From the IMG/VR virus record IMGVR_UViG_3300030012_000977, positions 1-23,062 of that record: DNA of 23,062 bases; one strand, written 5' to 3'. This DNA comes from a virus. Under the pieces are notes generated by a model. That model was not told where the DNA came from. It worked only from the letters and a program-made list of their open reading frames with translations, and searched no databases. Below, one piece after another: positions 1,944-23,062 of this stretch; the stretch's first letter is position 1, and each line of letters starts with the position of its first letter. The position numbers were made by a program, and so were the translations under genes.

Positions 1944-1970
1944 AATATGGCTAATTTATCCAATATAAAT
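1944..1970 (+). repeat. 27-base direct repeat, copy 1, at a fibre gene start
   Basis: The bases around the start codon of the second fibre gene (AAT-ATG through the codons for MANLSNIN) are identical to those at 4987-5013. Identity stops right after this block, so the two genes share only the leader triplet and the first eight codons. Confidence 0.9.
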
Positions 1971-4900
1971 AATTTTTTCGTTGTAGAACAAACAACAGGA
2001 TATGTTGGTATAGGAAATACAGATCCTGGTTTTCCACTTGAAGTAAAATTTGCTAGTGCTGAATTAGCTTTAAATGCAACAGGTGGTTCTATTTATAGAG
2101 TTAGAAGCACAGCTAGTGATGAATTTATTATTACTAGAAACGGTGTAGATGATTTCTTAACTCTATCAAGTGGTGGTGATGCAACTTTTAGAGGCAGTAT
2201 AACAACTGGTAATGGAACACCTAATACGGGTTCTCTAACGGTTTCAGGAGGTTTAACAGTTAATTGGTCAGGAAGTGGTGGAACAACTGCTTGGGGTAAT
2301 TTTAGTAATATAACTACTGCTAGTGCTAATACAGATGCTTCAGTACTTAAAATTAATCAAAAAAATACTGGAGGTACAAATCAAACTTTAGAAATAGGGG
2401 TTGTTGCGGATGGAAATGCTTGGTTTGGATCTAGAAATGTCACGATAACAGGTATAACTTTAGGTTTAGCTAGTGGTAATGCAACTTTTTCTGGTAATGT
2501 AACAGTACAAAGCGGTAATAAACTTATTTTAAATAGACCAAATAATGCTATTGACTGCGAATTATCTACTGATTCATCAGGTACTTTAATACTAAATAGT
2601 AGAAATGGCGAAGGGTTTAAGTTTCAAAACGCTGGAACAAATTTTGTAACAGGTGATAGTTCTAATAATGTAACTTTTGCAGGAAATGTAAAAATAGGAA
2701 CTTCAACAACTGGAACACCTGCTGTAAATGCAGATGATTTAGTTATTGATAAAGGTGCAAGTGAATCAGGAATAACTTTAATGTCAACTGCTGCTGGTTC
2801 TATAAGATTTGGAGATGCTGCAAATACTTCAATAGGTTTTATAGAATATAATCATAATTCAAATTATATGCGATTCGGCACTGATGCTTCAGAAAGAATG
2901 CGTATAAGTTCAGGAGGTACTGTTAAAGCTGATGCCTTTGCTCCTTTAGATAGTGCAACAAGTTTAATTGATTTTTCAACAGATAATGTAATTAAGTTAT
3001 TTACAAATTCAACAGAAAGACTGCGTATTACAAGCACAGGGCAAGTACAAGTAGGTTATTATAATACAGCAAGAGGTGGTGTTAATACTACTTTTATGAC
3101 TGGTAAATCTGGAACAACATACCTTGAATTAAATGGAGGTGATGTTAATGGTGAAGGAGGAATATTGTTTGCTGATGGTTCTGGTGGAAATTATGGTTTA
3201 CTTAATTATTCTCACGTTAGCGATATAATGCAATTTTATACTGCTTCTGCAGAAAGAATGCGTATAAAATCTTCAGGTTCAATATATCCTGTTAATTCTA
3301 TTCAAGGAACTTATTTTGGTCAAGATGCAGGAAATCCTGCAAATGTAACAGGAGTAGGAAATACAAGTATTGGATATGCAACAGGACAATTATTAACATC
3401 AGGGTATCAAAATGTTTCAGTAGGTAGGTCAGCAAATGAAAAACTTACAACAGGTTACAATAATGTTAGCGTGGGAACAAATGCAGGTTATAATAATGTT
3501 GATGGATTACAAAATACTTATATAGGAACTGCAGCAGGTTATACTTCGCCTGGTCAAAATTACAATACTTTTGTAGGGTATGAAGCCGGACACCTTAACG
3601 AAGCTAATGAAAATACAGCAGTAGGTAGATTAGCATTAACTGCTAATACTACAGGAGGATATAATACTGCAATAGGTACGCAAGCGTTAACTAATAACAC
3701 TACTCAAGAGAAATTAACAGCATTAGGATACAGGTCAGGATACTACTGGACAGGTGGAAATGAGAATACATTTATTGGCTATCACGCGGGTTTTGGCTCA
3801 GCAGCAGGGTCAACAGGTGGAGAAAATACTTTAGTAGGATCTTTAGCAGGTGCAAATACTTCAGCAATTACTGGAAATGGAAATACATCTTTAGGTAGAT
3901 ACACTTTATTTTCTTTAACAGATGGCGAATTCAACACAGCATTAGGTCATCAAGCAGGTGGAACTATAAGTACAGGAGATTCAAATACTCTTGTTGGTAA
4001 AAATGCAGGAGATAGTATTGGTGGAGGAAGTCGTAATAGTATGTTAGGGCAAAGTGCAGGTCAAGCAATAACAAGTGGTTCAGATAATATAGGGATAGGT
4101 CATGAAGCGTTATATAATGTTACAACAGGTGGCTCAGGAACAATAGCTATTGGAGCAATTTCTTTATATAGTTTTACAGGAAGTAGGACAATTGCAATAG
4201 GATATGGAGCAGGTAGACTTTTAGCAAGCGCTATTGATAATGTATTTATAGGACAACAAGCAGGAGAATTAAGAACAGGTGGTATTGATAATACAGCAGT
4301 TGGTGCTTTTTCTCAATATGGTGGCACAAGTGGAAGTAATCCAAGTGGGTGCTGTAATAGTTCATTTGGTAGAGCAACTTTATATAGTATCACAGTGGGA
4401 GTTCAAAATACTGCAATAGGTAGACAAGCAGGTTATCATATTACAAATGGTTATAATAATACTTTAGTAGGTCATAATACTGCTTTAGCTATGGTAGGTG
4501 GCTATGATAATACTTGTATTGGGTCAGCAGCAGGAGATATTCTAACATCAGGATACAACAACACTTGTATAGGTTATAATTCAGACACACCGTCAAACTC
4601 ATCTACAAATACAGTTGTTTTAGGAAATACTGCTATTAGTTCTTTACAATGTCAAGTTCAAACTATTTCTGCTTTATCAGATGAAAGAGATAAAACAAAT
4701 ATTAAAGATTCTAATTATGGGTTGAATTTAATAGATTCTTTAAGACCTGTAACTTTTGAATGGAATCAAAGAGATGGTAATAAAACAGGTAAAAAAGATT
4801 TAGGGTTTATTGCTCAAGATTTACAAAAAGTAAATGATGAACATTTAGATTTGATTAATGATGAAAACCCTGAAAAATTATTAGCATCTTATGGTAGATT

Positions 4901-4988
4901 AATACCTGTATTAGTTAAGTCAATACAAGAATTAAAAGAAGACAACGATAGTTTAAAAGCTAGAATAGAAACGTTAGAAAATAAATAA
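1947..4988 (+). CDS. Tail fibre with ~two dozen YadA-head repeats and C-terminal peptidase S74 chaperone
   Basis: The protein has 1013 residues. It starts at ATG 1947 with an AT-rich leader, 9 bases after the previous stop. The N-terminus MANLSNIN is shared with the next two fibres and may dock them to the virion. Residues ~20-450 are beta-rich modules with repeated ERMRI/ERLRI-x-S-x-G motifs. Residues ~454-898 hold about two dozen repeats of ~20-25 residues with an N-T-x-x-G-x-x-A-G core, typical of YadA-like trimeric heads. The C-terminal ~105 residues form a peptidase S74 (endosialidase-type) intramolecular chaperone: LSDERDKTNI with candidate dyad S911/K916, GFIAQDLQ, then a helical tail of the IQELK type. 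In this family the domain drives trimerisation and cuts itself off. Receptor binding is inferred. Confidence 0.9.
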   Translation: MANLSNINNFFVVEQTTGYVGIGNTDPGFPLEVKFASAELALNATGGSIYRVRSTASDEFIITRNGVDDFLTLSSGGDATFRGSITTGNGTPNTGSLTVSGGLTVNWSGSGGTTAWGNFSNITTASANTDASVLKINQKNTGGTNQTLEIGVVADGNAWFGSRNVTITGITLGLASGNATFSGNVTVQSGNKLILNRPNNAIDCELSTDSSGTLILNSRNGEGFKFQNAGTNFVTGDSSNNVTFAGNVKIGTSTTGTPAVNADDLVIDKGASESGITLMSTAAGSIRFGDAANTSIGFIEYNHNSNYMRFGTDASERMRISSGGTVKADAFAPLDSATSLIDFSTDNVIKLFTNSTERLRITSTGQVQVGYYNTARGGVNTTFMTGKSGTTYLELNGGDVNGEGGILFADGSGGNYGLLNYSHVSDIMQFYTASAERMRIKSSGSIYPVNSIQGTYFGQDAGNPANVTGVGNTSIGYATGQLLTSGYQNVSVGRSANEKLTTGYNNVSVGTNAGYNNVDGLQNTYIGTAAGYTSPGQNYNTFVGYEAGHLNEANENTAVGRLALTANTTGGYNTAIGTQALTNNTTQEKLTALGYRSGYYWTGGNENTFIGYHAGFGSAAGSTGGENTLVGSLAGANTSAITGNGNTSLGRYTLFSLTDGEFNTALGHQAGGTISTGDSNTLVGKNAGDSIGGGSRNSMLGQSAGQAITSGSDNIGIGHEALYNVTTGGSGTIAIGAISLYSFTGSRTIAIGYGAGRLLASAIDNVFIGQQAGELRTGGIDNTAVGAFSQYGGTSGSNPSGCCNSSFGRATLYSITVGVQNTAIGRQAGYHITNGYNNTLVGHNTALAMVGGYDNTCIGSAAGDILTSGYNNTCIGYNSDTPSNSSTNTVVLGNTAISSLQCQVQTISALSDERDKTNIKDSNYGLNLIDSLRPVTFEWNQRDGNKTGKKDLGFIAQDLQKVNDEHLDLINDENPEKLLASYGRLIPVLVKSIQELKEDNDSLKARIETLENK
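3252..3272 (+). repeat. 21-base repeat shared between fibre genes, copy 1
   Basis: This encodes the ERMRIKS motif of the second fibre gene. It is identical over 21 bases to 8617-8637 in the fourth fibre gene. A 17-base version starts at 2891. Confidence 0.75.
3310..4640 (+). repeat. Array of YadA-head-like coding repeats
   Basis: Successive units read NTSIGYATG, NVSVGTNAG, NTYIGTAAG, NTFVGYEAG, NTAVGRLAL and so on to NTCIGYNSD, about two dozen units of ~60-75 bases. The conserved core is N-T-x-(I/V/L)-G-x-x-A-(G/L), separated by a T-G-x-x-N turn. The protein pattern is clear; the DNA copies are diverged. A smaller array of the same type lies at about 943-1412 in the preceding gene. Confidence 0.85.
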
Positions 4989-5013
4989 TATGGCTAATTT
5001 ATCCAATATAAAT
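4987..5013 (+). repeat. 27-base direct repeat, copy 2, at a fibre gene start
   Basis: This is identical to 1944-1970 and spans the start codon of the third fibre gene. The fourth fibre gene, at 7456, has a diverged version that still encodes MAKLSNIND. Confidence 0.9.
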
Positions 5014-7455
5014 GATAAACTCGTTTTAACAATAGACGGAGCTGCATTAATCAATCAAGGTACTGTTGATTATGGAACTGCTAAACTACAAGTTTCTGGA
5101 AATGGGTCAACAGGTACCATTACCTGGAGAAATGATGGTGGTAGAAAAACTGGTTATTTATATAGTGATTCAGCTGGTGTAGCAATTTATTCCACAGCTC
5201 TTGCTAACGCTGGTATTTATCTAGCAGATAATGTACAAATAGATTTTAGAGTTAACGGTTCACAACGAATGATTATAGACAGTTCTGGAAATGTAGGAAT
5301 AGGAGTTACTCCAAATGCTAATTGGAATACCTTAACATCCTTACAAATTAAAAATGCTGCTTTATCTGGTTTTAGTAATTCTATGTACTTAACTCAGAAT
5401 GTTTATTATGATGGTGCGTGGAAATATATTGCAAATGATTTTGCATCAAAAATACAGGCAGATGATGGAATTACTATTTCAGTAGCAGGAAGTGGTAGTG
5501 CTAACACTGCTATATCTTTTGTAAATGCTTTAACAATAAGCAATTCAGGAAACTCAACTTTTGCAGGAATTGTAGGTATGGGTAGTACGGGTATTTATGC
5601 CGGTGTTAATGCTCAATTAAATTTACCAGGTAGAGGTATAGCTATTAAAAATGATAAAAATGGTAGCGATAACAACTGGAGTTATATATATAATACAGGA
5701 ACATCAAGTCAAGCAAATTTGGATTTTGTAACTGGAATAGGAACAGCTTTAACATTAAATCACGATAAGTCAGCAACTTTTGCAGGAGGAGTAAATATAA
5801 CAGGAGCAAACAATACAACATCAACCTTAACTTTAACGAATACAGCAGCAACTCCAGATAATTCGTGGTCTTTAGTACCTCAATATAATTCACAGGATTT
5901 ACAATTACTTGAAGATGCAAGTACGAGAGTTACTTTTAAAGGTGGTGGAAAAGTTATTGTGGGTACTGATTCAAGTAATGCTTTAGAAGTATTTTCTTCA
6001 GGGGATACAGAAATAGGATTTTCTTATGCTTCACACGGAAATGTTTATGCTAAAATAATTGGAGATGTAACTCAAGCAAGTCCTTTAGGCGGAGAGTTAG
6101 CGTTTCAAACTGCAACAGGAGGCAGTTTATCAGAAAGCATGCGTATAGACAGTTCTGGTCGAGTAGGAATTGGAATGACACCATCTGACTATGCAGGATA
6201 CCCTCTTCAATTATATGGGGGTTCACAAACATTTATGACTTTTGGTAATGATACAACAGGCACAGGAGCTTTAAATGGTTTGATTATTGGGTGTGATTCT
6301 ACAGGTGCAGATATATACCAAAGAGAAGCACAACCGTTGCGTTTTAGCACAAGCAACGCACAAAGAATGGTTATATCCAGTTTAGGGGTTGTATCAATTG
6401 GAACAACGTCTCCTATAACTGACCCTTTTATATTAACAAATCAATTTCAACAATTACAAGTAGGAAGAAGTGGGCTTATGGGGAGTTATACCACAAGTTC
6501 TGGGGAAACTATGTTTTCTAACAATATTTATGTGGGTTCTACACATAACACTTTTCAAGCTATAGATACAGCAGCAAATGGAACAGCAATGTTTTTATAT
6601 AATGATTATATATCTTTTAAAATTGGAACTACTGCAGGTAATGGCACGGTTGGTGTAGCAGAAAAACTGAGGATAACCTCTACTGGGTTTTTAAATTTAT
6701 ATGATGGTGCTGTTACATTAAATAAATCTGATGGAACTTATATAATATTTGATTACAATGGTTCTACAAAAGGATATATAGGTTCTGCAAGGCAAATTAT
6801 AACTGGAGAAACTTCAGCTAACATGTCTGTAGCTTCAACAGGAGATTGGGTATTCGGAGCTGGAGCATCTTTAGCTGAAAGAATGAGGATAACATCAACA
6901 GGAAACGTTGATATAGGTACTAATCCAAGAACAGCGAAGTTTAAGGTTGCAACAAATAATGTTGATTATGTAGCTAGTTTAGTTTCACTTAGAGCTGCAG
7001 GTGTTGATTGTTATGGTTTTGAGGTTAAATATCAAAACGCTACACCTAATGGCACAGGAAATCATTTTGCTTTTTTCCACGATTCAACTGGAGAAAAATG
7101 TTCATTTCCATCAAACGGGGGTATTAGAAATTTCCAAACTAATGATGTCAATATTTCCGACAGAAGAACAAAAGAAGATATAAAAGATGCACCAAATAGT
7201 TTAGATATTATTTCTCAATTAAAAGTTAGAAATTATAAATTAAAAAACAGGTCAGATGAAAGAGTTAATACTGGTCTTATTGCTCAAGAAGTTGAAGAAG
7301 TTTGTAAAGAATTAGTAAATAATTCCGGGTTACAAGCTAAAAATAAAGAAGATAGTAGTGATATGAAAGGTATCTATAACACTGATTTAATGTTTATGAT
7401 GTTGAAATCAATACAAGAACTGAAAGCAGAAATTGAATTATTGAAAAACAAATAG
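4990..7455 (+). CDS. Tail fibre with peptidase S74 intramolecular chaperone
   Basis: The protein has 821 residues and starts one base after the previous stop, so translation is probably coupled. It begins with the shared MANLSNIND peptide. The body is a long run of beta modules of the (S/A)-(E/Q)-(R/K)-(M/L)-x-I-x-S-x-G-x-V-x-I-G type, at least six copies, and has no YadA-head repeats. The C-terminal ~100 residues are a peptidase S74 domain: ISDRRTKEDI with candidate dyad S723/K728, then TGLIAQEVEEV, and a final helix KSIQELKAEIELLKNK. Self-cleavage after trimerisation is expected from the family. The distinct body suggests a receptor or position different from its neighbours. Antisense open frames within it are compositional shadows. 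Confidence 0.9.
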   Translation: MANLSNINDKLVLTIDGAALINQGTVDYGTAKLQVSGNGSTGTITWRNDGGRKTGYLYSDSAGVAIYSTALANAGIYLADNVQIDFRVNGSQRMIIDSSGNVGIGVTPNANWNTLTSLQIKNAALSGFSNSMYLTQNVYYDGAWKYIANDFASKIQADDGITISVAGSGSANTAISFVNALTISNSGNSTFAGIVGMGSTGIYAGVNAQLNLPGRGIAIKNDKNGSDNNWSYIYNTGTSSQANLDFVTGIGTALTLNHDKSATFAGGVNITGANNTTSTLTLTNTAATPDNSWSLVPQYNSQDLQLLEDASTRVTFKGGGKVIVGTDSSNALEVFSSGDTEIGFSYASHGNVYAKIIGDVTQASPLGGELAFQTATGGSLSESMRIDSSGRVGIGMTPSDYAGYPLQLYGGSQTFMTFGNDTTGTGALNGLIIGCDSTGADIYQREAQPLRFSTSNAQRMVISSLGVVSIGTTSPITDPFILTNQFQQLQVGRSGLMGSYTTSSGETMFSNNIYVGSTHNTFQAIDTAANGTAMFLYNDYISFKIGTTAGNGTVGVAEKLRITSTGFLNLYDGAVTLNKSDGTYIIFDYNGSTKGYIGSARQIITGETSANMSVASTGDWVFGAGASLAERMRITSTGNVDIGTNPRTAKFKVATNNVDYVASLVSLRAAGVDCYGFEVKYQNATPNGTGNHFAFFHDSTGEKCSFPSNGGIRNFQTNDVNISDRRTKEDIKDAPNSLDIISQLKVRNYKLKNRSDERVNTGLIAQEVEEVCKELVNNSGLQAKNKEDSSDMKGIYNTDLMFMMLKSIQELKAEIELLKNK

Positions 7456-10401
7456 ATGGCAAAGTTATCTAATATTAATGATTTATTTGCGGTTGAAAGT
7501 ACTGGTGCTATAAAATTTAATGATCAACCAGGAAATTCAGGCCAGATATTAAAATCAAATGGTAATACCTCGCCAACTTGGGTTGATCAAAGCACTATTG
7601 TGGGTGATTATGTTCCTATAGCTGGTAATGTTACTATAGAGGGTCCTATATCTACAGACACTGGAATAGCTCTTACTGTGGGAGGTGTTTTAACAGGTAC
7701 AACTGCAACTTTTACAGGTATTGTAACAACAGATAAAATATTTGTTGCTAAAGGTCAAAATATAGCACATACGGCGAGTTCTATTAAAGTTTCACAAGAA
7801 AGTACAATTAAAAGTCAAATTAGATGTTATGGTGCAGATGCAAGTACAGCGGGAACTCTTGAACTTGTTCTTAGCGCTTCTGATGGAGCTCCTAGTTATA
7901 CAGCGTTAGCTTTTGATAATACTGCAAATGCAACTTTTGCAGGTAAAATAGTTGGTCAAGATGATGACTCAGTACAATTAGAATTAAAAAGAACATCTTC
8001 AGGAACTGATGGTAATACAACAATAAAATTTGTGCAACCTTTAGGTGATGGATATTTTGGAGTTAATTTAAATGGTGATTTATCTTTTGGTACAGCAGCA
8101 AATTTAATTACAAATAATAAATTCAAAGTAACAAGGTCAGGAAACGCAACTTTTGCAGGTATTATAGGTGTAAATGGTTCTACAACTGCTAATGTTCCTA
8201 TAACAGCAACAACAAGTTCTGGTTATGAAGATGTTGCGTATTTTAAATCAGCAGGAACTAATATTAATTCAAGAATAAGTTTGTTCCCCACAGGAACAGG
8301 TAATGGTGCTATAAATTCCGCATCCAATAGTTTACTTTTACAAACTTCTGGTACAACTGCTTTAACATTAGATTCATCACAAAACGCAACTTTTGGAGGT
8401 ACTTTAACACTCTCAAATAGTGGTGTTCCAACTTTAAAACTAAATTGTACAGACACATCTTTAGCTGTTCAAACTTTAGGTTCTATTGAATTTAATCAAA
8501 ATGACCCAAGCAGTCCTGGAGCAGGTGTAGTTGCTAGAATTAATTCGGTCAATGAAAGCACTTTTACAGGTGAAGGAGCGTTAACATTCCAAACAGGCAG
8601 TTCTTCAACAATAACTGAAAGAATGCGTATAAAATCTGATGGTGTAATTACTTTTTCTAAAACCGCTAATACTACAACCCCTGTTGCAAGTATAAATCAT
8701 GCAAGTAATGATTTTGTATATTTTAGCGGTGGTGCAGGGGGTGGTTCTTTTGGAGATGATTCACATTCTACTCGTATGATAGCTTTTGATAGTGATTATT
8801 TGAGGTTTGATACTGCTGGTTCAGAAAAAATGCGTATTGATAGTTCAGGACGGGTTGGTATTGGAGGACCTCCGACATCTACAGTAAGATTAAGCACAAG
8901 AGGTTTAACTAATACAAATGCTGACTTTTCTTTTGAAGCTGCTAATAGTAGTGGAAATAGTTTGTTTCTAGTAAGGAGCGATGGAAATGTAGGAATCGGG
9001 ACGACTTCGCCTGATGAAATGCTTACTGTCAAAGGTGGTAATATTAGATTAGAATCAACAAGTGCTGGTAATAATGGAATTTTGAGGATTTATGATTCTA
9101 ACACAACTGAAAGTGGACAAATTTATGGTTCTGCAGGTGATTTAAAAATTTATAGCCCTGCTGATGTTTTATTTAATCAAGCCGGGAAAGTAGGTATCGG
9201 AATAATTGCACCTGGAGCGATTTTAGATATTGCTAGAAACGCAACAAAAACAAATACAGGTACTTCAGAGATTATGTATATAGGAACTTCTAATGAAGCA
9301 AGTAATTATGCTACATTACAAGTGTATACTGTAGGTGCAGCTGCTGCCGCGGATAGACAATGGAACTTCCAAACAATAGAACAAGGTGTTGCAAACGCAG
9401 GAAATATTTCTTTTCAACCTTCTGGAGGAAAAGTAGGAATAGGAATAACTTCGCCTTATACAAAATTACAAGTTGCGGGAGATATTAGTTTAAATATAAG
9501 ATCCTCTGCTTCGGAAAATTACATAGGAAGATTAGGTGGGGCAACAACATGGACGTATGGAAATAGAATTGGATTTGGGTTTGATGCAGCTGGAGATGGT
9601 TATATGGGCTTTTATATATTAGATTCTGGAGTAGGAGATGCAACACCTTTATTTTTAGCTGGTAACAACGGAGGACGAGTAGGAATCGGAGAAACAGCAC
9701 CTGCCGCTAAACTAGATGTTAAAGTTGCTTCAAATGAACATTTTTTAGTTAGTGATTCTTTATCTACTGTAGCATTAAAAGCTACTAATGATGCCGCCGC
9801 TGCTTACGTTCCAATGTCAATTAATGGTTCAACTTTAGCTATAAATGCTGATTCTGGTGGGACTTTTCTAGTGGGTAGCACATCATTAGGTTTATCAAAT
9901 AATGGATTTCACCTTTATAACCCAAATACATCTACTACTTATGCTGAATTTGTTAGGACATCAACTACAGACGCTTCAGCAAATATTTATATATCAAGAG
10001 CTAATGATGCAAATGCTTTATTATTTTACAGAAACGATGTTTCTGCAACAGTAGGAAGTGTATCTGTAACAACATCTGCAACATCTTACAACACTTCATC
10101 TGACTACAGATTAAAAGAAAATGTAGTAGAAATGACTGGAGCTTTAGATAGAGTAAGTCAATTAAAACCTAGTAGATTTAATTTTATAGCAGATGCAGAT
10201 AAAACAGTAGATGGGTTCTTAGCACACGAAGTACAAGAAATAGTGCCTGAAGCTATTACAGGAGAAAAAGATGCAGTAGATAAAGATGGAAATCCTGAAT
10301 ATCAAGGAATAGACCAATCAAAATTAGTACCATTATTAGTAGGTGCAATACAAGAACTAAAAGCAGAAATAGAAACTTTAAAAACACAAATAAATAAATA
10401 A
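7456..10401 (+). CDS. Tail fibre with peptidase S74 intramolecular chaperone
   Basis: The protein has 981 residues. Its ATG directly follows the TAG of the previous gene. The N-terminus MAKLSNINDLFAVESTG matches the shared leader peptide of the two upstream fibres. A G-x-x-G-Q-I-L-K-S-x-G...W module near residue 30 is also seen (as GQVLTSGG) in the first gene. The body contains ERMRIKS, EKMRIDSSGRVGIG and four further G-x-V-G-I-G-x-x-x-P repeats, typical of phage fibre shafts. The C-terminal ~100 residues are a peptidase S74 chaperone with SSDYRLKENV (candidate dyad S882/K887), VDGFLAHEVQEIVP and a terminal helix AIQELKAEIETLKTQINK. Its role is probably host recognition. Confidence 0.9.
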   Translation: MAKLSNINDLFAVESTGAIKFNDQPGNSGQILKSNGNTSPTWVDQSTIVGDYVPIAGNVTIEGPISTDTGIALTVGGVLTGTTATFTGIVTTDKIFVAKGQNIAHTASSIKVSQESTIKSQIRCYGADASTAGTLELVLSASDGAPSYTALAFDNTANATFAGKIVGQDDDSVQLELKRTSSGTDGNTTIKFVQPLGDGYFGVNLNGDLSFGTAANLITNNKFKVTRSGNATFAGIIGVNGSTTANVPITATTSSGYEDVAYFKSAGTNINSRISLFPTGTGNGAINSASNSLLLQTSGTTALTLDSSQNATFGGTLTLSNSGVPTLKLNCTDTSLAVQTLGSIEFNQNDPSSPGAGVVARINSVNESTFTGEGALTFQTGSSSTITERMRIKSDGVITFSKTANTTTPVASINHASNDFVYFSGGAGGGSFGDDSHSTRMIAFDSDYLRFDTAGSEKMRIDSSGRVGIGGPPTSTVRLSTRGLTNTNADFSFEAANSSGNSLFLVRSDGNVGIGTTSPDEMLTVKGGNIRLESTSAGNNGILRIYDSNTTESGQIYGSAGDLKIYSPADVLFNQAGKVGIGIIAPGAILDIARNATKTNTGTSEIMYIGTSNEASNYATLQVYTVGAAAAADRQWNFQTIEQGVANAGNISFQPSGGKVGIGITSPYTKLQVAGDISLNIRSSASENYIGRLGGATTWTYGNRIGFGFDAAGDGYMGFYILDSGVGDATPLFLAGNNGGRVGIGETAPAAKLDVKVASNEHFLVSDSLSTVALKATNDAAAAYVPMSINGSTLAINADSGGTFLVGSTSLGLSNNGFHLYNPNTSTTYAEFVRTSTTDASANIYISRANDANALLFYRNDVSATVGSVSVTTSATSYNTSSDYRLKENVVEMTGALDRVSQLKPSRFNFIADADKTVDGFLAHEVQEIVPEAITGEKDAVDKDGNPEYQGIDQSKLVPLLVGAIQELKAEIETLKTQINK
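8617..8637 (+). repeat. 21-base repeat shared between fibre genes, copy 2
   Basis: This is identical to 3252-3272 and encodes the ERMRIKS motif in the fourth fibre gene. Such microhomologies between paralogous fibres could seed recombination. Confidence 0.75.
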
Positions 10402-11193: not shown

Positions 11194-12756
11194 ATGTCAA
11201 ATGCAATTGTTAAGAATTTAAGCTTCGGCTTAAATGCTAAAGATAATGTATTTGCTGGTATTACAAAACTTACACAAGCCGTTAGCTCCACATTAGGGGC
11301 TAGTGGTAAGTGTGTTATGTTAGAAGATGGTGCCGGCCAACCTATTATCACAAAAGATGGTGTAACTGTAGCAGAAGCTATTACACTATTAGACCCAGTA
11401 GAAAACATGGGTGCAACACTTTTAAAGCAAGCTGCTAAAAAAACTGTAACAGAAGCTGGTGATGGAACTACTACAGCAACAGTACTTGCTCATGCTATTT
11501 TAGAAGAAGCTTATGATTTAAACTCTGAATCAACAAGAGATATAAAAGAAGGTATAGAAATAGCAACAGAAAAAGTTGTAAAATATTTAGAAAATATATC
11601 AATACCTGTAACGGGTGATATGATAGATCAAGTAGCTACAATATCTACAAATAATGATCCTAAGCTAGGGAAAATAATAGCTGATGCTTTTAGAGCTGTA
11701 GATCAAACTGGTGTTGTAATGTTAGAAGTTTCTGATTTACCAGAAACAAAATTTGAAATTATTGATGGAGTTCAATATAATAGAGGTTTAAAAAATATTC
11801 ATTTTGTAACTAATCAAGATACAAAAACTGCTGAACTTGATAAACCTTTAGTATTAATAGTAGAATCACAAGTAGAAAACGTTAGGAAAATACAAAATGT
11901 TTTAGAATATGCTATTAAAAACAAAAGAGCTTTATTAATTATTGCTGATGTAGATACTCAAGTAATGTCTGCTCTTGCAATGAACAAAATAAAAGGTAAT
12001 ATTAAAGTTAATGTTATCGATGCTCCTATTTATGGAGTAAATAAAAAAGAGACACTCGAAGATTTAGCTCTTTTAACAGGTGCTACTGTTATAAACGAGG
12101 ATTTAGGTGACGATATTGATTTAATTCAACCTGAGCAACTAGGCGAGTGTATAAAAAGTATTAGTAGTGAACATGAGACAATTTTACATACTCATGAAGC
12201 AAACGAAGAAGTTAATAGTTTAATTAAAGAAATTAAAGCAAAACTTAAAACAGCTAAACACGGTACAATAGTAGTTAATAATGAAAAAAGATTAGCTAGA
12301 TTATCAGGTAAAGTTGCTGTTGTAAAAGTTGGGGCTAATTCAGAGGTTGAATTAAAAGAAAAAAGAGATAGAATTGAAGATGCTATTTGTGCTACTAAAG
12401 CTGCAATTAAAGAAGGTATAGTACCAGGTGGTGGTATAGCTTTATTAAACGCTGCTCAAAATATTAAACTTGATAATAAATATGAAAATATTTTATTAGA
12501 AGCTGTTAAATCACCTTTTAACACTATTTTACGTAATGCTGGTATTGAAAATTATGATATGCAAGGATTACACGAAACAGGTGAGGGTGTTAACGTTGTT
12601 ACAGGAAATATGGTAAATATGATTGAGTCAGGGATTATTGATCCTTTACTTGTCACAAAAAGTGCATTAAAAAATGCAGCTTCTGTAGCTACTACTATTT
12701 TATCAACCGATTGTGTAATCAATAATTTAAGAGTTAATGAAGGCAATAGGGAATAA
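11194..12756 (+). CDS. groL: Phage GroEL-like chaperonin (group I, 60 kDa)
   Basis: The protein has 520 residues, against 548 in E. coli GroEL. By my hand alignment the ATPase residues are kept: ITKDG (D55, equivalent to D52), GDGTTTATV (D90, equivalent to D87), EDAICATKAA (D396, equivalent to D398) and VPGGGIALL at 410-418. The equatorial, intermediate and apical order is intact. The apical groove is altered: positions matching Y199, Y203 and L234 are L, H and Q, while F204 and L237 are kept, and the V263/V264 equivalents are A and M. The C-terminus stops soon after STDCVINNL, so the GGM tail is missing. The leader is AAATT-ATG without Shine-Dalgarno. It overlaps the GroES-like gene by 20 bases. 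It probably folds phage structural proteins in the cytoplasm, possibly the large fibres; the substrate is inferred. Confidence 0.92.
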   Translation: MSNAIVKNLSFGLNAKDNVFAGITKLTQAVSSTLGASGKCVMLEDGAGQPIITKDGVTVAEAITLLDPVENMGATLLKQAAKKTVTEAGDGTTTATVLAHAILEEAYDLNSESTRDIKEGIEIATEKVVKYLENISIPVTGDMIDQVATISTNNDPKLGKIIADAFRAVDQTGVVMLEVSDLPETKFEIIDGVQYNRGLKNIHFVTNQDTKTAELDKPLVLIVESQVENVRKIQNVLEYAIKNKRALLIIADVDTQVMSALAMNKIKGNIKVNVIDAPIYGVNKKETLEDLALLTGATVINEDLGDDIDLIQPEQLGECIKSISSEHETILHTHEANEEVNSLIKEIKAKLKTAKHGTIVVNNEKRLARLSGKVAVVKVGANSEVELKEKRDRIEDAICATKAAIKEGIVPGGGIALLNAAQNIKLDNKYENILLEAVKSPFNTILRNAGIENYDMQGLHETGEGVNVVTGNMVNMIESGIIDPLLVTKSALKNAASVATTILSTDCVINNLRVNEGNRE

Positions 12757-12997
12757 TTTAATAGTAGATATGACTAAAATAGGAGTATCTGAAACAAAAG
12801 GTGGGTTATTTTTAGGTGAAAAACAACGTGAAGATATTAGGTATGCAGAAGGTACCGTTTTATCTGCTGGTAGTAATGTTGTTGGTATAAAAGAAAAAGA
12901 TGTTATCTATTTTGATAAAAATAATACCCACCAAATAGAAATTAAAAAAGATATTTATCAAGTTGTGAACATGGCACATGTGGTAGTTGTGTTATGA
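12737..12997 (+). CDS. groS: Phage GroES-like co-chaperonin
   Basis: The protein has 86 residues, against 97 in E. coli GroES. The first strand is IGNNLIVDM. It is followed by a mobile loop, VSETKGGLFLGEKQ, whose G-G-L-F-L matches the G-G-I-V-L / G-G-I-M-L GroEL-binding tripeptide of GroES/Hsp10. Next come AEGTVLSAG (GEVLAVG equivalent), a short KEKDVIYFDKN turn (VGDIVIFN equivalent), and a last strand ending HVVVVL. The roof beta-hairpin region is shortened to a few residues. The start codon lies inside the GroEL-like gene (20-base overlap, different frame), so the two are translationally linked. It should cap the phage GroEL ring or redirect the host ring, as T4 gp31 does. Function is inferred from the family. 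Confidence 0.85.
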   Translation: MKAIGNNLIVDMTKIGVSETKGGLFLGEKQREDIRYAEGTVLSAGSNVVGIKEKDVIYFDKNNTHQIEIKKDIYQVVNMAHVVVVL

Positions 12998-13437
12998 GAT
13001 TAGATGCGTCTGATATTAAAAATCTTAATCTTTTAAAACATTACAGGATCATTAGAAAATGGGCTTGTAAAAATAACAATTTAAATGACGCTGATTTAGA
13101 ATTACTTATTTATTTCGATTGTATGGATCTTTTTACTAAAGAAGATTTTAAAATCGGTACTTATTCTTATAGTTGGGACAATAGACGCTGGAACAGGTTG
13201 TTAAAAGAAGGTTGGATAATCGTATGGCGAAAGCATAATCGTACAACCCAAAAATATAACATATATAAAGTTTCTTTCAAGTGTAAACAACTAATAAGTA
13301 GAATGTACCGAATTATGTTAGGTAAAGAAGATATACCGACTTCAATAGCTAGAAATAAAATAATGAAAGGTAAAAGCTACATGGATAGAGTAATGATTAC
13401 ATCCATTAATAACGTTAATAAAGATAAAAACAGATAA
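12994..13437 (+). CDS. Putative winged-helix protein coupled to groES
   Basis: The protein has 147 residues. It starts in the ATGA overlap with the GroES-like stop. Residues 1-50 are helical with a polar RIIRKWACKNNNLNDADLEL segment. Residues ~50-100 read FTKEDF...SYSWDNRRWNRLLKEGWI, then IVWRKHNRTTQKYNIYKVS, which suits a recognition helix followed by a beta wing (MarR-like layout). The C-terminal third is basic (KQLISRMYRIML, KIMKGKSYMDRVM). I recall similar proteins of this size in marine flavophages, without a known role. DNA or RNA binding and a regulatory role are inferred. There is no membrane segment or enzyme motif. Confidence 0.7.
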   Translation: MRLDASDIKNLNLLKHYRIIRKWACKNNNLNDADLELLIYFDCMDLFTKEDFKIGTYSYSWDNRRWNRLLKEGWIIVWRKHNRTTQKYNIYKVSFKCKQLISRMYRIMLGKEDIPTSIARNKIMKGKSYMDRVMITSINNVNKDKNR

Positions 13438-17605: not shown

Positions 17606-17832
17606 TGTCATCTGTAATTAGAAAGATAAGTATTGGTTCTGACTACAAAACCGATGCAATGCACTATTCGATAGGGCAGTCGGTATATGGTGGTCATACA
17701 ATATCACATATACTTTCTGATTCTAAAGACAATTCTTATAATATTTTTATCAAAAAAAATGACGAGGTATTGCCGTGGAAGAAATTTAATTCTAACATGG
17801 CAATATCCGTTGAGTATGATTTAGAATACTAA
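17605..17832 (+). CDS. Small conserved-looking phage protein
   Basis: The protein has 75 residues, and its ATG shares a base with the previous TAA. It is a compact beta protein: AMHYSIGQSVYGGHTISHIL, then DSYNIFIKK-type strands and EVLPWKKFNSNMAISVEYDL. The A-M-H-Y-x-I-G-Q-x-V-x-G-G-H-x-I pattern looks conserved and, from memory, occurs in other marine phages as an unassigned protein. No catalytic residues or membrane segment are visible. It is coupled to the tandem GroES-like gene by TAATG. Function unknown. Confidence 0.65.
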   Translation: MSSVIRKISIGSDYKTDAMHYSIGQSVYGGHTISHILSDSKDNSYNIFIKKNDEVLPWKKFNSNMAISVEYDLEY

Positions 17833-18437
17833 TGAAAAGTTTATTTGATTTTATTGTTAAACCTTATGGTGAACGATATAATAATAAAGTTAAAGTAGGT
17901 GACAAAAGCCTTATAATAAACACTCAGATAGAAACCTTTAAATCAGTTAACAATATAGCTAAAGTTATACAAGTTCCTTTAGCTTATAAAACTCCAATAA
18001 AAAAAGGTGATTTAATTATGATTCATCATAATGTTTTTAGAAGATGGTATAATATAAGGGGTGATGAAAAAAATAGTAAATCATATTTTAAAGATGGTTT
18101 ATATTTTGTAAATAAAGATCAAATTTATCTTTATAAAAGAAACAACAAATGGATGTCTTTTAATGATAGATGTTTTGTAGCACCACTTAGAGATAATGTT
18201 GAAATACACAACTGGTTAGAACAAGGTCTTATTGGAGTATTAAAATATGGTAATAGTGCGTTAGAAGCGCTAGAAATAACCGAGGGAGACGTTATTGGCT
18301 ATAAACCCTTTGGTGAATTTGAGTTTATCGTAGATGGTAAACGTCTTTATTGTATGAAATCTAATGATATTGTAATAAAATATGAACGTCAAGGAAACGA
18401 AGTTGAGTATAATCCAAGCTGGGCACAAAGCAGTTGA
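17832..18437 (+). CDS. Protein with two GroES-like barrel halves
   Basis: The protein has 201 residues and starts in a TAATG overlap. The second half (~133-185) follows the GroES core: LIGVLKYGN (GEVLAVGNG equivalent), LEITEGDVIGYK (VKVGDIVIFN), EFEFIVDGKRLYCMKSNDIV (KIDNEEVLIMSESDIL). The first half (~24-120) repeats the order: NIAKVIQVPL, IKKGDLIMIHH, then KDGLYFVNKDQIYLYKRNNK and CFVAPL. Neither half has an obvious G-G-hydrophobic mobile loop, so direct GroEL capping is doubtful. The C-terminus NPSWAQSS is polar. It could be a virion or assembly factor using the GroES fold, or a co-chaperonin variant working with the window's GroEL-like protein. The fold is inferred by eye. The last 56 bases overlap the next gene. 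Confidence 0.7.
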   Translation: MKSLFDFIVKPYGERYNNKVKVGDKSLIINTQIETFKSVNNIAKVIQVPLAYKTPIKKGDLIMIHHNVFRRWYNIRGDEKNSKSYFKDGLYFVNKDQIYLYKRNNKWMSFNDRCFVAPLRDNVEIHNWLEQGLIGVLKYGNSALEALEITEGDVIGYKPFGEFEFIVDGKRLYCMKSNDIVIKYERQGNEVEYNPSWAQSS

Positions 18438-18654
18438 AGAGCTTATTAAGGTAGCAAAAGAAAAAATTGTTGATTCAGAAGATGATGTTTCAGCAGATAG
18501 ATTAAAAAATGCTGCAGCAACTAAAAAGTTAGCTATATTTGATGCTTTTGAAATATTAAATCGTATTGAAGAAGAAAATAATATTTTAGACAATAAACAA
18601 GTTGAAAAAAAAGAAAAAACTTTCAGTGGGTTTGCAGAAAGAAGATCTAAGTAA
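18382..18654 (+). CDS. Candidate small terminase subunit
   Basis: The protein has 90 residues and is almost all helix: KLSIIQAGHKAVEELIKVAK, then EDDVSADRLKNAAATKKLAI, FDAFEILNRIEEENNIL and a basic GFAERRSK tail. Its place directly before the large terminase (shared base in TAATG), its size and its helical oligomeriser look suggest TerS. A DNA-binding HTH cannot be pointed out with certainty. The ATG at 18382 makes an unusually long 56-base overlap with the previous gene; a TTG at 18403 is an alternative. The hydrophobic-looking minus-strand frame across this gene is a shadow. The functional call rests mainly on position. Confidence 0.5.
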   Translation: MNVKETKLSIIQAGHKAVEELIKVAKEKIVDSEDDVSADRLKNAAATKKLAIFDAFEILNRIEEENNILDNKQVEKKEKTFSGFAERRSK

Positions 18655-20876
18655 TGTATAAGCAAACTTTATATAAGATAGTTGAACCTATTAAACCCCA
18701 TGTTATTAAAAGATTAAATAAATCTAAAAAATGGGAATATGGTTATAACAAAGAATATGATATTATTGTTATATCTAAAACTGGTCAAATAGGTGAAATA
18801 TACGAAATACAAAATTTACAAATAGCATTACCTTTAGCAGATAGTATATATAAACGATCTAATAAAAAATTAGAACAATATTGGGAGGTTTTTAAACCTA
18901 AGAAAGAATTAAAACAAATTAAAACAATATTTGATTGGAAAGCTTACCCGGTTCAATTTAAAGAAAAATTATACGATTATATAGATGAAGAATTTAAAAG
19001 AAGAGACGAAGGTTTCTGGTTCTATAATAAAGGTATTCCTACCTATCTTACTGGTACTCACTACATGTATTTGCAATGGTCAAAGATTGATGTTGGGCAA
19101 GCAGAATTTAGGGAAGCAAACAGATTATTCTTTATATTCTGGGAAGCTTGCAAAGCAGATACAAGATGCTATGGAATGTGTTATCTTAAGAACAGACGTT
19201 CAGGATTCTCTTTTATGGCATCGGGCGAAACTGTTAACATGGCCACAATATCAAGCGATGCTAGATTCGGCGTCTTATCAAAATCTGGGGCTGATGCTAA
19301 AAAAATGTTTACCGATAAAATCGTCCCAATCTCAGTTAACTATCCGTTCTTCTTCAAACCGATCCAAGATGGTATGGATAGACCAAAAACGGAGCTCGCG
19401 TATAGAGTACCAGCGTCAAGATTTACTAGAAAAAAACTTGACACTAATGAACAGATTGAAGAAATCGTTGGACTCGATACAACTATTGATTGGAAAAACA
19501 CGGGAGATAACTCCTACGACGGAGAAAAACTCGCGTTACTTGTACATGATGAGGCGGGTAAATGGGAAAAACCGGAAAACATCCTCAACAACTGGAGAGT
19601 CACAAAAACAACGTTAAGATTAGGTAGTAGAATTATAGGTAAGTGTATGATGGGTTCAACGAGCAACGCTCTTGACAAAGGTGGTAGAAATTACAAAAAA
19701 ATATATTATGACTCAGATGTTACTAAAAGAAACCGCAATGGACAGACTAGCTCAGGATTATATTCTTTGTTCATACCTATGGAATGGAACTACGAAGGAT
19801 ACATTGATTCTTATGGACACCCTGTCTTTGACACTCCGGAACAAGAAACTAAAGGAATCGATGGTCAAAAGATTGAGATCGGCGTCATACAACACTGGGA
19901 GAATGAAGTAGAAGGGCTTAAGGATGATCCTGATGCACTTAATGAATTATATAGACAATTTCCACGTACTGAAAAACATGCTTTCAGAGATGAAACGAAA
20001 CGATCTTTGTTTAATCTAACTAAGATTTATGAACAAATAGATTATAACGAAGGTTTAAAATATTCTGGAGTTATTACACAGGGTAGTTTTCATTGGAAAG
20101 AAGGTATACAAGATACACAAGTAATGTTTGTGCCTAGTAAACAAGGTAGATTTTTAGTATCTTGGGTTCCAAAAGAAGATCAACAAAATAGAGTTTTAAT
20201 AAAAAACGGGGCTAAATATCCTGCAAATGAGCATATGGGTGCTTTTGGATGTGACTCATATGATATATCTGGAACAGTAGATGGTAGAGGATCGAAAGGT
20301 TCTTTACACGGTTTAACCAAATTTACAATGGATGATTGTCCACCAAATTTATTTTTTTTAGAATATATATCTAGGCCACAAACAGCCGAGATATTTTTTG
20401 AAGATGTTTTAATGGCTTGTCATTTTTATGGAATGCCATTACTTGCTGAAAATAATAAACCTAGATTATTGTATTATTTTAAAAGAAGAGGTTATAGAGG
20501 TTTTTCTATGAACCGACCTGATAAAACTTTATATAAATTATCAGTTACTGAAAAAGAAATAGGTGGTATACCTAATTCAAGTGAAGATATAAAACAAGCT
20601 CACGCTGCAGCTATAGAAGCTTATATTGAAATGTTTGTAGGTTACAACAATGAACAATATGGTACAATGTATTTCCAAAAAACATTAGAAGATTGGGCTG
20701 CGTTTGATATAAACAATAGAACTAAACATGATGCTTCAATAAGTTCTGGTTTAGCTATTATGGCTTGTAATAAAAATAAATATAGACCTGTCGCTGAAAC
20801 TATAAAACAAGTTGTTAATTTAAACTTTTCTAAATATGACAACAAGGGTGATAAATCAAAAATAATTAATAGATGA
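18654..20876 (+). CDS. terL: Large terminase subunit (packaging ATPase/nuclease)
   Basis: The protein has 740 residues. The N-terminal ATPase has a deviant Walker A, KNRRSGFS at 180-187, and Walker B LALLVHDE at 293-300 (D299, E300) followed by AGKW. GSTSN at 334-338 is the coupling motif. A nuclease domain follows with FGCDSYD (D534, D537) and a C-terminal KHDASISSG Asp, the usual metal ligands of the RNase H-like fold. An N-terminal ~90-residue extension precedes the core. The ATG overlaps the previous stop, and the TGA overlaps the portal ATG. It pumps phage DNA into the prohead and cuts the concatemer. Bases ~19000-20000 use many more C-ending codons than the two ends of the gene. Confidence 0.93.
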   Translation: MYKQTLYKIVEPIKPHVIKRLNKSKKWEYGYNKEYDIIVISKTGQIGEIYEIQNLQIALPLADSIYKRSNKKLEQYWEVFKPKKELKQIKTIFDWKAYPVQFKEKLYDYIDEEFKRRDEGFWFYNKGIPTYLTGTHYMYLQWSKIDVGQAEFREANRLFFIFWEACKADTRCYGMCYLKNRRSGFSFMASGETVNMATISSDARFGVLSKSGADAKKMFTDKIVPISVNYPFFFKPIQDGMDRPKTELAYRVPASRFTRKKLDTNEQIEEIVGLDTTIDWKNTGDNSYDGEKLALLVHDEAGKWEKPENILNNWRVTKTTLRLGSRIIGKCMMGSTSNALDKGGRNYKKIYYDSDVTKRNRNGQTSSGLYSLFIPMEWNYEGYIDSYGHPVFDTPEQETKGIDGQKIEIGVIQHWENEVEGLKDDPDALNELYRQFPRTEKHAFRDETKRSLFNLTKIYEQIDYNEGLKYSGVITQGSFHWKEGIQDTQVMFVPSKQGRFLVSWVPKEDQQNRVLIKNGAKYPANEHMGAFGCDSYDISGTVDGRGSKGSLHGLTKFTMDDCPPNLFFLEYISRPQTAEIFFEDVLMACHFYGMPLLAENNKPRLLYYFKRRGYRGFSMNRPDKTLYKLSVTEKEIGGIPNSSEDIKQAHAAAIEAYIEMFVGYNNEQYGTMYFQKTLEDWAAFDINNRTKHDASISSGLAIMACNKNKYRPVAETIKQVVNLNFSKYDNKGDKSKIINR

Positions 20877-23062
20877 AATTAAACACTGGTATTAATAGTG
20901 CGTTTCCAAGTCAGATGGTATCTGAGGAGGAAAAGAAAAGTTTAGAATATGGATTATTAGTGGGGCAAGCTATTGAATACGAATGGTTTAGAGGAGGTAG
21001 AGTAAATGGTAGCAGGTGGAACACGGGTTATCAAAATTTTCACAATCTAAGATTATATGCTAGAGGAGAACAAAGTGTACAAAAATATAAAGATGAATTA
21101 TCTATTAATGGTGATTTATCTTATTTAAATTTAGACTGGAAACCAGTTCCTATTATACCTAAGTTTGTAGATATAGTGGTAAATGGTATATCTTCTAAAG
21201 AATATGATATAAAAGCTTTTTCTCAAGATCCTTTTTCTTTACAACAAAGAACACAATATGCCACTAACATAGTTGAAGATATGTATGGTCAAGATCTTAT
21301 AGCTCAAGCCAAGGAAACAACAGGTGAAGATTTTTCTAGATCAAATATTCCATCAAATCAATTACCTAGAAATAAAGAAGAATTAGAACTTCATATGCAG
21401 CTTTCTTATAAACAAAGTATTGAAATAGCTGAAGAAGAAGTTATTAATAATATTTTATCTAACAATAAATATAATTTAACTAAAAAAAGAATTATTGAAG
21501 ACATTGCAACAATAGGTATTGGTGCAGCTAAAACTACATTTAATAAATCTAACGGCGTTGTAGTAGATTATGTTGATCCTGCTAATTTAGTTTATTCATA
21601 TACTAATGATCCTAATTTTGAAGATATATATTATGTAGGTGAAATAAAATCTATGACTTTAGCTGAAATTAAAAAAAGGTTTCCATATCTTACAGATGAA
21701 GAATTAGAGAAAATGGTGAGATACCCTGGTAGAGATGGTTATATTGCAAACCCTAATTATGATAATGATTTAGTACAAATATTATTTTTTGAATATAAAA
21801 CATTTATTGATCAAGTTTTTAAAATTAAAAAAACTGATACAGGGTTGGAAAAAACATTAGAAAAACCGGATACTTTTAATCCACCTGAAAGTGATAATTT
21901 TAATAGAGTTTCAAGATCAATTGAAGTATTGTTTAGTGGTGCTAAAGTAATGGGTGTTCCACAAATGTTAGAATGGAAGTTAGCAGAAAACATGACTAGA
22001 CCTGTTTCTGATACAACTAAAGTTAAGATGAATTATACCATATGTGCACCTAGTCTATATCAAGGTCGTATAGAATCATTAGTTAGTAGATGTACAAGCT
22101 TTGCTGATATAATACAGTTAACATCATTAAAATTACAGCAAGTAATACAACGTATGGTTCCAGACGGTGTTTTTGTAGATGTTGATGGGCTTGCTGAAGT
22201 TGATTTAGGTAATGGAACCAATTATAATCCACAAGAAGCTTTAAACATGTATTTCCAAACTGGTAGTATAGTTGGTAGATCTTTAACTCAAGATGGTGAT
22301 CCTAACAGAGGTAAAGTACCTATTCAAGAATTACAAAGTAGTGCTGGTAATGCAAAAATTTCAGCTTTAATAAATACGTATCAGTATTATTTACAGATGA
22401 TAAGAGATGTAACCGGTCTTAATGAAGCACGTGATGGTAGTTTACCAGATAAAGATGCTCTAGTTGGATTGCAAAAAATGGCAGCTAATGCTTCAAATAT
22501 TGCAACTAAACATATACTAGATTCTAGTTTATATTTAACATTAAGAATATGTGAAAATATTTCTCTTAGGGTTGCGGATGCTTTAGAATTTCCACTAACA
22601 GCCAACTCATTAAAAGAAAGCATATCTGTTTTTAATACTGAAACACTTAAAGAAATAGATAAATTAAATTTACATGATTTTGGTATTTATATGGAATTAG
22701 AGCCGGACGATGAGGAAAAAGCACAATTAGAACAAAATATACAAATAGCTTTACAAAATCAAGGTATTGATTTAGAAGATGCTATAGATATTAGACAAAT
22801 AAAAAATTTAAAGTTAGCAAATCAAATGCTAAAACTTAAAAGAAAACAAAAACAAAAAGAAGATCAAGCTAATCAAAAAGCGATGATAGCTGCTCAAAGT
22901 GAGGCTAATGCAAAAGCGGCTGAGTCTGCAGCTATGAACGAAGTTCAAAAACAAGAGGCCTTAGCTAATACTGAAATACAAATAGAACAAGCAAAATCTC
23001 AGTTTGAAATACAAAGAATGGAACAAGAAGCATTAATTAAAAAGCAATTAATGGCTGAAGAG
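20873..23062 (+). CDS. Portal protein (3' partial)
   Basis: The frame is open for 730 codons from ATG 20873 (ATGA overlap with terL) to the window end. The N-terminal part has EYEWFRGGRVNGSRWNTGYQ and WKPVPIIPKFVDIVVNGISS, typical of the start of large portal proteins. The middle contains IEDIATIGIGAAKTTF and VDYVDPANLVYSYT (clip/stem region). KISALINTYQYYLQMIRDVT and GLNEARDGS follow, the classic portal stem and tunnel helices before a G-L-Q region. Residues ~614-730 are a long charged, Gln/Lys/Ala-rich coiled coil that continues past the edge. It forms the dodecameric ring through which TerL packages DNA. The position after terL fits. The missing C-terminus lies outside the window. Confidence 0.88.
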   Translation, partial: MKLNTGINSAFPSQMVSEEEKKSLEYGLLVGQAIEYEWFRGGRVNGSRWNTGYQNFHNLRLYARGEQSVQKYKDELSINGDLSYLNLDWKPVPIIPKFVDIVVNGISSKEYDIKAFSQDPFSLQQRTQYATNIVEDMYGQDLIAQAKETTGEDFSRSNIPSNQLPRNKEELELHMQLSYKQSIEIAEEEVINNILSNNKYNLTKKRIIEDIATIGIGAAKTTFNKSNGVVVDYVDPANLVYSYTNDPNFEDIYYVGEIKSMTLAEIKKRFPYLTDEELEKMVRYPGRDGYIANPNYDNDLVQILFFEYKTFIDQVFKIKKTDTGLEKTLEKPDTFNPPESDNFNRVSRSIEVLFSGAKVMGVPQMLEWKLAENMTRPVSDTTKVKMNYTICAPSLYQGRIESLVSRCTSFADIIQLTSLKLQQVIQRMVPDGVFVDVDGLAEVDLGNGTNYNPQEALNMYFQTGSIVGRSLTQDGDPNRGKVPIQELQSSAGNAKISALINTYQYYLQMIRDVTGLNEARDGSLPDKDALVGLQKMAANASNIATKHILDSSLYLTLRICENISLRVADALEFPLTANSLKESISVFNTETLKEIDKLNLHDFGIYMELEPDDEEKAQLEQNIQIALQNQGIDLEDAIDIRQIKNLKLANQMLKLKRKQKQKEDQANQKAMIAAQSEANAKAAESAAMNEVQKQEALANTEIQIEQAKSQFEIQRMEQEALIKKQLMAEE

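What the first reader, a model, noticed from the sequence alone, without database searches (positions are those of the whole stretch)
11194..12997. A complete phage GroEL-GroES pair in reversed, overlapping order
The window encodes both a full-length group I chaperonin with all ATPase motifs and a co-chaperonin with a genuine mobile loop. Bacterial operons usually run groES then groEL. Here groEL comes first, and groES starts inside its last 20 bases. Known phage precedents are partial: T4 gp31 is a co-chaperonin alone, and the phage EL chaperonin acts without a co-chaperonin. A self-contained pair next to a bank of large trimeric fibres suggests a phage-owned folding machine for its structural proteins.
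Basis: partly seen in the sequence, partly recalled or inferred. Interest (0 to 1): 0.75.

Follow-up and report, generated by a model that had tools for sequence, protein, structure and literature searches.

The report
Phage chaperonin with two lid proteins

Summary
groEL (11194-12756, 520 aa) and groES (12737-12997, 86 aa) overlap by 20 nt in the order groEL-groES. ATP-site residues are intact, the pair is under purifying selection, and the arrangement recurs in all 80 closest IMG/VR loci. The GroEL forms a phage clade outside Flavobacteriaceae GroELs, whose 30 sampled genomes all read groES first. So it is an old phage-owned system, not a recent host pick-up.

It is not unprecedented. Elemovirus, ctfjg026 and Maribacter phage Panino have the same order. 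Marine Bacteroidetes phage GroELs were reported in 2017 (PMC5332604), and gene order linked to viral GroEL phylogeny was, as I recall, published by Marine et al. 2017.

Profile, structure-model and relative-sequence evidence make it a tandem double-GroES protein, closest in fold to chloroplast Cpn20. It accompanies terL in every locus examined, and persists with a short GroES in one 73-kb relative in which no GroEL was found.

Best reading: a phage chaperonin with a roofless gp31-like lid plus a Cpn20-like lid, probably for virion proteins. Clients and lid composition are inferred.

The parts
11194..12756 (+). groEL, group I chaperonin, 520 aa; full three-domain length; all ATP-site residues kept; no C-terminal GGM tail
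12737..12997 (+). groES (Cpn10), 86 aa; mobile loop present; roof hairpin shortened by 9 residues, as in roofless T4 gp31; start lies 20 nt inside groEL
12737..12756 (+). 20-nt groEL/groES overlap (17 or 20 nt in 78 of 79 related loci), probably translational coupling
12994..13437 (+). ORF147 (phrog_17028, unknown function), ATGA overlap with the groES stop; kept in related loci; median dN/dS 0.066
17832..18437 (+). second co-chaperonin-like protein, 201 aa, tandem GroES domains (Cpn20-like); phrog_13932 'co-chaperonin GroES'
18654..20876 (+). terminase large subunit (phrog_6681); the Cpn20-like gene lies just upstream of it in every terL-bearing related locus
20873..23062 (+). portal protein, runs off the window end (phrog_6547)
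1947..10401 (+). three large tail fibre/spike ORFs (1947-4988, 4990-7455, 7456-10401), each with a C-terminal Peptidase_S74 domain; possible clients, not shown

Best explanation
The window encodes a phage-owned group I chaperonin system of three proteins. (1) A GroEL that, by its conserved ATP site, should hydrolyse ATP and cycle like bacterial GroEL (inferred). (2) A short GroES lid translated by coupling from the end of groEL; its roof hairpin is shortened, so the cage would be open at the top as with T4 gp31. (3) A tandem double-GroES protein of the Cpn20 architecture, encoded with the terminase and portal genes. During infection the lids cap the phage GroEL, and possibly host GroEL, to fold phage proteins that host GroEL-GroES handles poorly, most likely large virion proteins made late (capsid, portal or fibres). 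Shown: gene identity, order, conservation, phage ancestry, intact ATP residues, co-chaperonin folds by model. Inferred: ring formation, lid binding, late expression, clients, and that protein 3 is a working lid.
For: Families and residues. Fold models: short GroES against solved Cpn10s Z up to 11.8, gp31 Z 9.8 at rmsd 1.4 over 64 residues; long protein against Cpn20 (7ekq_R) Z 10.3 over 158 residues spanning 1-185, Foldseek E 2.7e-5 (chain name). Pfam Cpn10 above cut-off in the second domain of relatives (28.0 bits in Calle_1, 24.1 bits in L266). Synteny in 80 loci. Purifying selection on all three genes. Distances of groEL, groES and the long protein remain correlated after terL distance is removed: 0.49, 0.44 and 0.37. 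Same trio in Elemovirus, ctfjg026, Panino and Callevirus. Record G078 keeps both lids, the short one inside an operon with large structural-looking ORFs, while no GroEL was found in it. gp31 lacks roof loops and enables folding of the capsid protein gp23 (PMC6318259).
Against: No expression, assembly or client data. Inter-ring residues are poorly conserved and the GGM tail is absent, so a single ring is possible. Apical lid/substrate-binding positions differ from E. coli (Y199L, Y203H, L234Q, V263A, V264M). The window's long protein scores below Pfam's Cpn10 cut-off (16.3 against 21.1 bits); its N-terminal domain is supported by the structure model only; model pLDDT is a moderate 75; its second domain lacks a canonical mobile-loop motif. 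The distance correlations do not exclude shared inheritance or joint transfer.
Confidence: 0.65

Rival explanations
1. Only the short GroES is a lid. The 201-aa protein kept a GroES fold but was repurposed, for example as a packaging or head-assembly factor tied to terL and portal.
For: Sits just upstream of terL in all terL-bearing loci; about 5 kb from groEL; second-domain mobile loop degenerate in this clade; retained in a record without detectable GroEL.
Against: PHROG groups it as a co-chaperonin; best solved-fold match is a genuine tandem co-chaperonin; relatives keep a canonical loop in domain 2 (MIGSIIVP in L266); in phi40:1, whose record flags virion proteins by MS/MS, the homologue gp089 is not flagged; its distances track groEL beyond terL.
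Confidence: 0.25
2. The co-chaperonins mainly redirect host GroEL, gp31-like; the phage GroEL is an auxiliary that some lineages lose.
For: A 72.8-kb Callevirus relative (G078) has both lids and no GroEL by three searches.
Against: 23 of 26 long-protein records do carry GroEL, the other two without it being 30-34 kb fragments; groES is fused by overlap to groEL in 78 of 79 loci; strongest residual distance correlation is groEL with groES.
Confidence: 0.2
3. A recent host operon captured and inverted by the phage.
For: Host-type group I proteins; likely host group also has groESL.
Against: Tree places the family with phage GroELs, outside 30 Flavobacteriaceae hosts; about 40% identity or less to any GroEL in cultured phage records and no bacterial genome contig of close kin apart from phage-like contigs; host order is groES first in 30 of 30.
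Confidence: 0.02

Closest known systems
Elemovirus (Flavobacterium phages vB_FspP_elemo) and ctfjg026 (MW202828) groEL-groES
   Same: Same reversed order with groES at the groEL 3' end, plus a 180-187 aa GroES-like gene upstream of the terminase
   Different: About 38% GroEL identity to Elemovirus; elemo groEL-groES lies on the opposite strand to its neighbours and its GroEL has GDSTTCT instead of GDGTTTA
Virioplankton GroELs of marine Bacteroidetes phages (group 2, Nishimura et al. 2017, PMC5332604; Marine et al. 2017, PMC5649160)
   Same: GroEL in 36 environmental genomes related to Cellulophaga phi38:1; from memory, Marine et al. report that GroEL/GroES gene order follows GroEL phylogeny
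   Different: No double-length co-chaperonin discussed in what I could read; Marine et al. is not held, only its citation was seen
T4 gp31
   Same: Roof loop missing, mobile loop slightly longer than GroES; Cpn10 fold Z 9.8 (PMC6318259)
   Different: gp31 works alone on host GroEL; here groEL and groES are an overlapping pair
Chloroplast/apicoplast Cpn20 with Cpn10
   Same: One single-domain and one tandem-domain co-chaperonin serving a group I chaperonin; best fold match of the long protein is Chlamydomonas Cpn20 (7ekq_R)
   Different: No sequence kinship beyond the Cpn10 domain; second domain lacks a canonical mobile loop in this clade; phage, not plastid
EL, OBP and AR9 phage chaperonins
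   Same: Phage-encoded GroEL relatives
   Different: Giant-phage chaperonins reported to act without co-chaperonin (PMC9598537); AR9 is a very long branch in the tree

Membership tests
Group I chaperonin (GroEL/Cpn60) | Cpn60 homology over the full length | tested here: met
   Pfam 208.5 bits over 26-510; PDB GroELs E down to 2e-111
Group I chaperonin (GroEL/Cpn60) | ATP-binding and hydrolysis residues (D52, D87, T89-T91, D398, G414-416, D495) | tested here: met
   Invariant in the window and the 80 family rows aligned
Group I chaperonin (GroEL/Cpn60) | Separate GroES-type co-chaperonin encoded with it | tested here: met
Group I chaperonin (GroEL/Cpn60) | Heptameric double ring, ATPase, lid-dependent refolding | not testable with these tools
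   Needs biochemistry; inter-ring positions are variable
GroES/Cpn10 (short ORF) | Cpn10 sequence and fold | tested here: met
   31.8 bits against 21.1; Z 11.8 to 1p3h, 82 residues
GroES/Cpn10 (short ORF) | Mobile loop with hydrophobic GG-x-x-L type motif | tested here: met
   GGLFL aligned with GGIVL; loop low in pLDDT; G23, L24, L26 invariant
GroES/Cpn10 (short ORF) | Roof hairpin (typical, not universal; absent in gp31) | tested here: not met
   9-residue deletion in alignment
Cpn20 tandem co-chaperonin (long ORF) | Two Cpn10-fold domains in tandem | tested here: met
   AF2 model against 7ekq_R Z 10.3, 158 residues; N domain Z 8.0 (4pj1), C domain Z 5.7 (1hx5); C domain passes Pfam Cpn10 in Calle_1 and L266. 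N domain not confirmed by sequence; moderate pLDDT
Cpn20 tandem co-chaperonin (long ORF) | Canonical mobile loops in both domains | tested here: not met
   Canonical in domain 2 of L266 only; degenerate in the window clade. Hence filed as Cpn20-like architecture, not as a Cpn20 family member
Cpn20 tandem co-chaperonin (long ORF) | Hetero-oligomer with Cpn10 or functional capping of Cpn60 | not testable with these tools
   Needs native MS or cryo-EM
T4 gp31 | Roofless Cpn10 fold | tested here: met
T4 gp31 | Acts with host GroEL to fold the major capsid protein | not testable with these tools
   No host or client data

The most novel reading that the evidence does not exclude
The short and long proteins co-assemble into one mixed lid of seven GroES domains (for example three tandem proteins plus one single), a phage counterpart of the chloroplast Cpn10/Cpn20 lid, giving an asymmetric cage tuned to large virion proteins and able to cap phage or host GroEL.
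Probability: 0.15. Interest if true: 0.75.

Novelty: new variant of a known kind. Interest (0 to 1): 0.45.

Why it matters
The groEL-groES pair shows that phage-owned folding machines with a lid are common in marine Bacteroidetes phages and that their reversed order is an old lineage trait. The added tandem lid, found here beside terL in every related locus examined, would be the first Cpn20-type architecture outside plastids that I am aware of (no mention found in the searched library), and offers a small, cultured system (Elemovirus, Callevirus) in which to ask why a chaperonin needs two kinds of lid and which virion proteins need their own folding cage.

Tried and rejected
Host capture: rejected by the GroEL tree. 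Chance overlap or spurious ORF for groES: rejected by conservation of length, start and overlap in 79 loci. First residue table was off by one in numbering and was redone. Sequence-only searches of the long protein against the PDB gave only weak BamB-type matches, which the fold comparison does not support; not pursued. A Bacteroidetes-type -7 promoter motif (TANNTTTG) is not enriched in the window (33 sites, 37.9 expected), so no promoter was assigned. Long protein in 395 Bacteroidota genomes: no match, with no positive control inside that set; the same profile did ring in 19 of 20 phage records. Panino's long protein found no IMG/VR kin. Papers on phage tandem GroES: none found.

Full report
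What is there. The window is a 23,062-base IMG/VR virus record. groEL at 11194-12756 and groES at 12737-12997 are real and overlap by 20 nt. groEL matches Cpn60_TCP1 and the phage GroEL PHROG over its whole length and its best PDB matches are bacterial GroELs. In an alignment with E. coli GroEL every ATP-site residue tested is kept except small changes outside the catalytic set (P33A, A480V), and those kept are invariant in the family except N479 (N or D). The C-terminal GGM tail is missing. Apical lid/substrate-binding positions are changed in a family-wide way (Y199L, Y203H, L234Q, V263A, V264M; F204 and L237 kept), which suggests a lid and client set of its own (inference).

The short GroES. 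It passes the Cpn10 cut-off, and its AF2 model (pLDDT 87) matches solved Cpn10s at Z up to 11.8 and gp31 at Z 9.8. The mobile loop carries GGLFL. The roof hairpin is shortened by 9 residues, the feature that PMC6318259 names for gp31 as leaving a wider opening.

Conservation. All 80 best IMG/VR relatives have groES directly after groEL. Where both ORFs could be delimited (79 loci) the overlap is 17 nt in 64, 20 nt in 14 and 4 nt in 1; groES is 86 aa in all; the next ORF (phrog_17028) overlaps by 4 nt in 75. Median dN/dS is 0.18 for groEL, 0.16 for groES, 0.21 for the long protein, 0.08 for terL. These are expressed-protein signatures under purifying selection.

Ancestry. An IQ-TREE tree of 59 GroELs puts 13 window-family members in one clade (100/100), joined with Elemovirus and Panino GroELs (95/99), separate from 30 Flavobacteriaceae GroELs (100/98); long branches make the deeper joins unsure. 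All 30 hosts have groES first. A 98%-identical GroEL lies on a contig binned in a Flavobacteriaceae MAG, a weak pointer to the host.

ORF 17832-18437 (201 aa) matches phrog_13932 'co-chaperonin GroES' at 2e-25. Its AF2 model (pLDDT 75) has as best solved match chain R of 7ekq, named Cpn20 co-chaperonin subunit in the PDB: Z 10.3, 158 residues, spanning 1-185. Separate domains match Cpn10s (N domain Z 8.0, C domain Z 5.7). The second domain passes Pfam Cpn10 in Calle_1 (28.0 bits) and in L266 (24.1 bits), where a canonical loop (MIGSIIVP) survives; the window copy reaches only 16.3 bits. The N domain is supported by the model, not by sequence profiles. So it is best called a Cpn20-like tandem co-chaperonin with a degenerate second loop.

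Distribution of the trio. Every related terL-bearing locus has the long gene upstream of terL, and 19 of 20 GroEL records ring with its profile. Conversely 23 of 26 long-gene records carry GroEL; two of the three without are 30-34 kb fragments, the third is a 72.8-kb Callevirus relative, the length of Calle_1, with no GroEL by three searches but with an 88-aa Cpn10 (GGLIIIP loop) set among large structural-looking ORFs. Whether that record is complete is not known. Elemovirus, ctfjg026, Panino and Callevirus each have GroEL, a short Cpn10 and the long protein. 'Chaperonin cpn10' is listed as a core protein of Pervagoviridae in PMC8776804. Bacteroidota genomes sampled lack the long protein (0 of 395).

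Mechanism. Best supported: a phage GroEL whose lid is made in step with it by translational coupling, plus a tandem lid made with the late packaging genes, together providing a cage for virion proteins. The distances of the three proteins stay correlated after terL distance is removed (0.49, 0.44, 0.37; permutation p 0.001), as expected of interacting parts, though joint inheritance could do the same. In green algae and plants Cpn10 and Cpn20 form hetero-oligomers of seven GroES domains (PMC5780408); a mixed phage lid is the most novel reading and is untested. In phi40:1, where virion proteins are flagged by MS/MS in the record, the long homologue gp089 is not flagged, which argues weakly against a structural role.

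Known or new. The pair and its order are known: Elemovirus and ctfjg026 records, GroELs in marine Bacteroidetes phages (PMC5332604), and, from my own knowledge of its abstract, Marine et al. 2017 (PMC5649160, cited; not held), which reported that large/small subunit gene order is linked to viral GroEL phylogeny. The tandem lid is annotated piecemeal in databases as GroES or cpn10, but I found no paper describing its double-domain nature. Hence 'new variant of a known kind', interest 0.45.

Noticed in passing
   Followed up: yes
window 12994-13437: ORF147 (phrog_17028, no known function) is translationally coupled to groES and has the lowest dN/dS measured (0.066); homologues occur away from groEL in Panino and Calle_1.
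   Followed up: partly
L296:3416-3682 (record G078): A 72.8-kb Callevirus relative has a short Cpn10 among large structural-looking ORFs and the long GroES-like gene but no detectable GroEL.
   Followed up: partly
L204:129-395, minus strand (Maribacter phage Panino PANI_CDS0109): Annotated hypothetical, but a Cpn10 at 36 bits, 44-aa ORF away from groEL: reversed order again.
   Followed up: yes
records G061, G068 (L100, L231) and G102 (L076): GroEL match split in two pieces (one with an in-frame TAA) in G061 and G068, and a stop inside the long-protein match in G102; real decay or assembly error.
   Followed up: no
L254 (Vibrio phage Va1): A phage groEL without neighbouring groES sits between tail sheath and tail tube genes.
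   Followed up: no
L263 (CAKLQH020000021, 'Acinetobacter phage MD-2021a'): The groES-groEL here is flanked by bacterial genes (dgkA, lipid kinase); the 'phage' record looks like bacterial DNA.
   Followed up: no
L168, L170, L171: Close phage-type groEL contigs are binned in MAGs named Aliivibrio, Woesearchaeota and Desulfobacteraceae; probably mis-binned phage contigs.
   Followed up: no
L083 (Elemovirus GroEL): The phosphate-binding motif reads GDSTTCT instead of GDGTTTA; ATPase may be altered in that genus.
   Followed up: no
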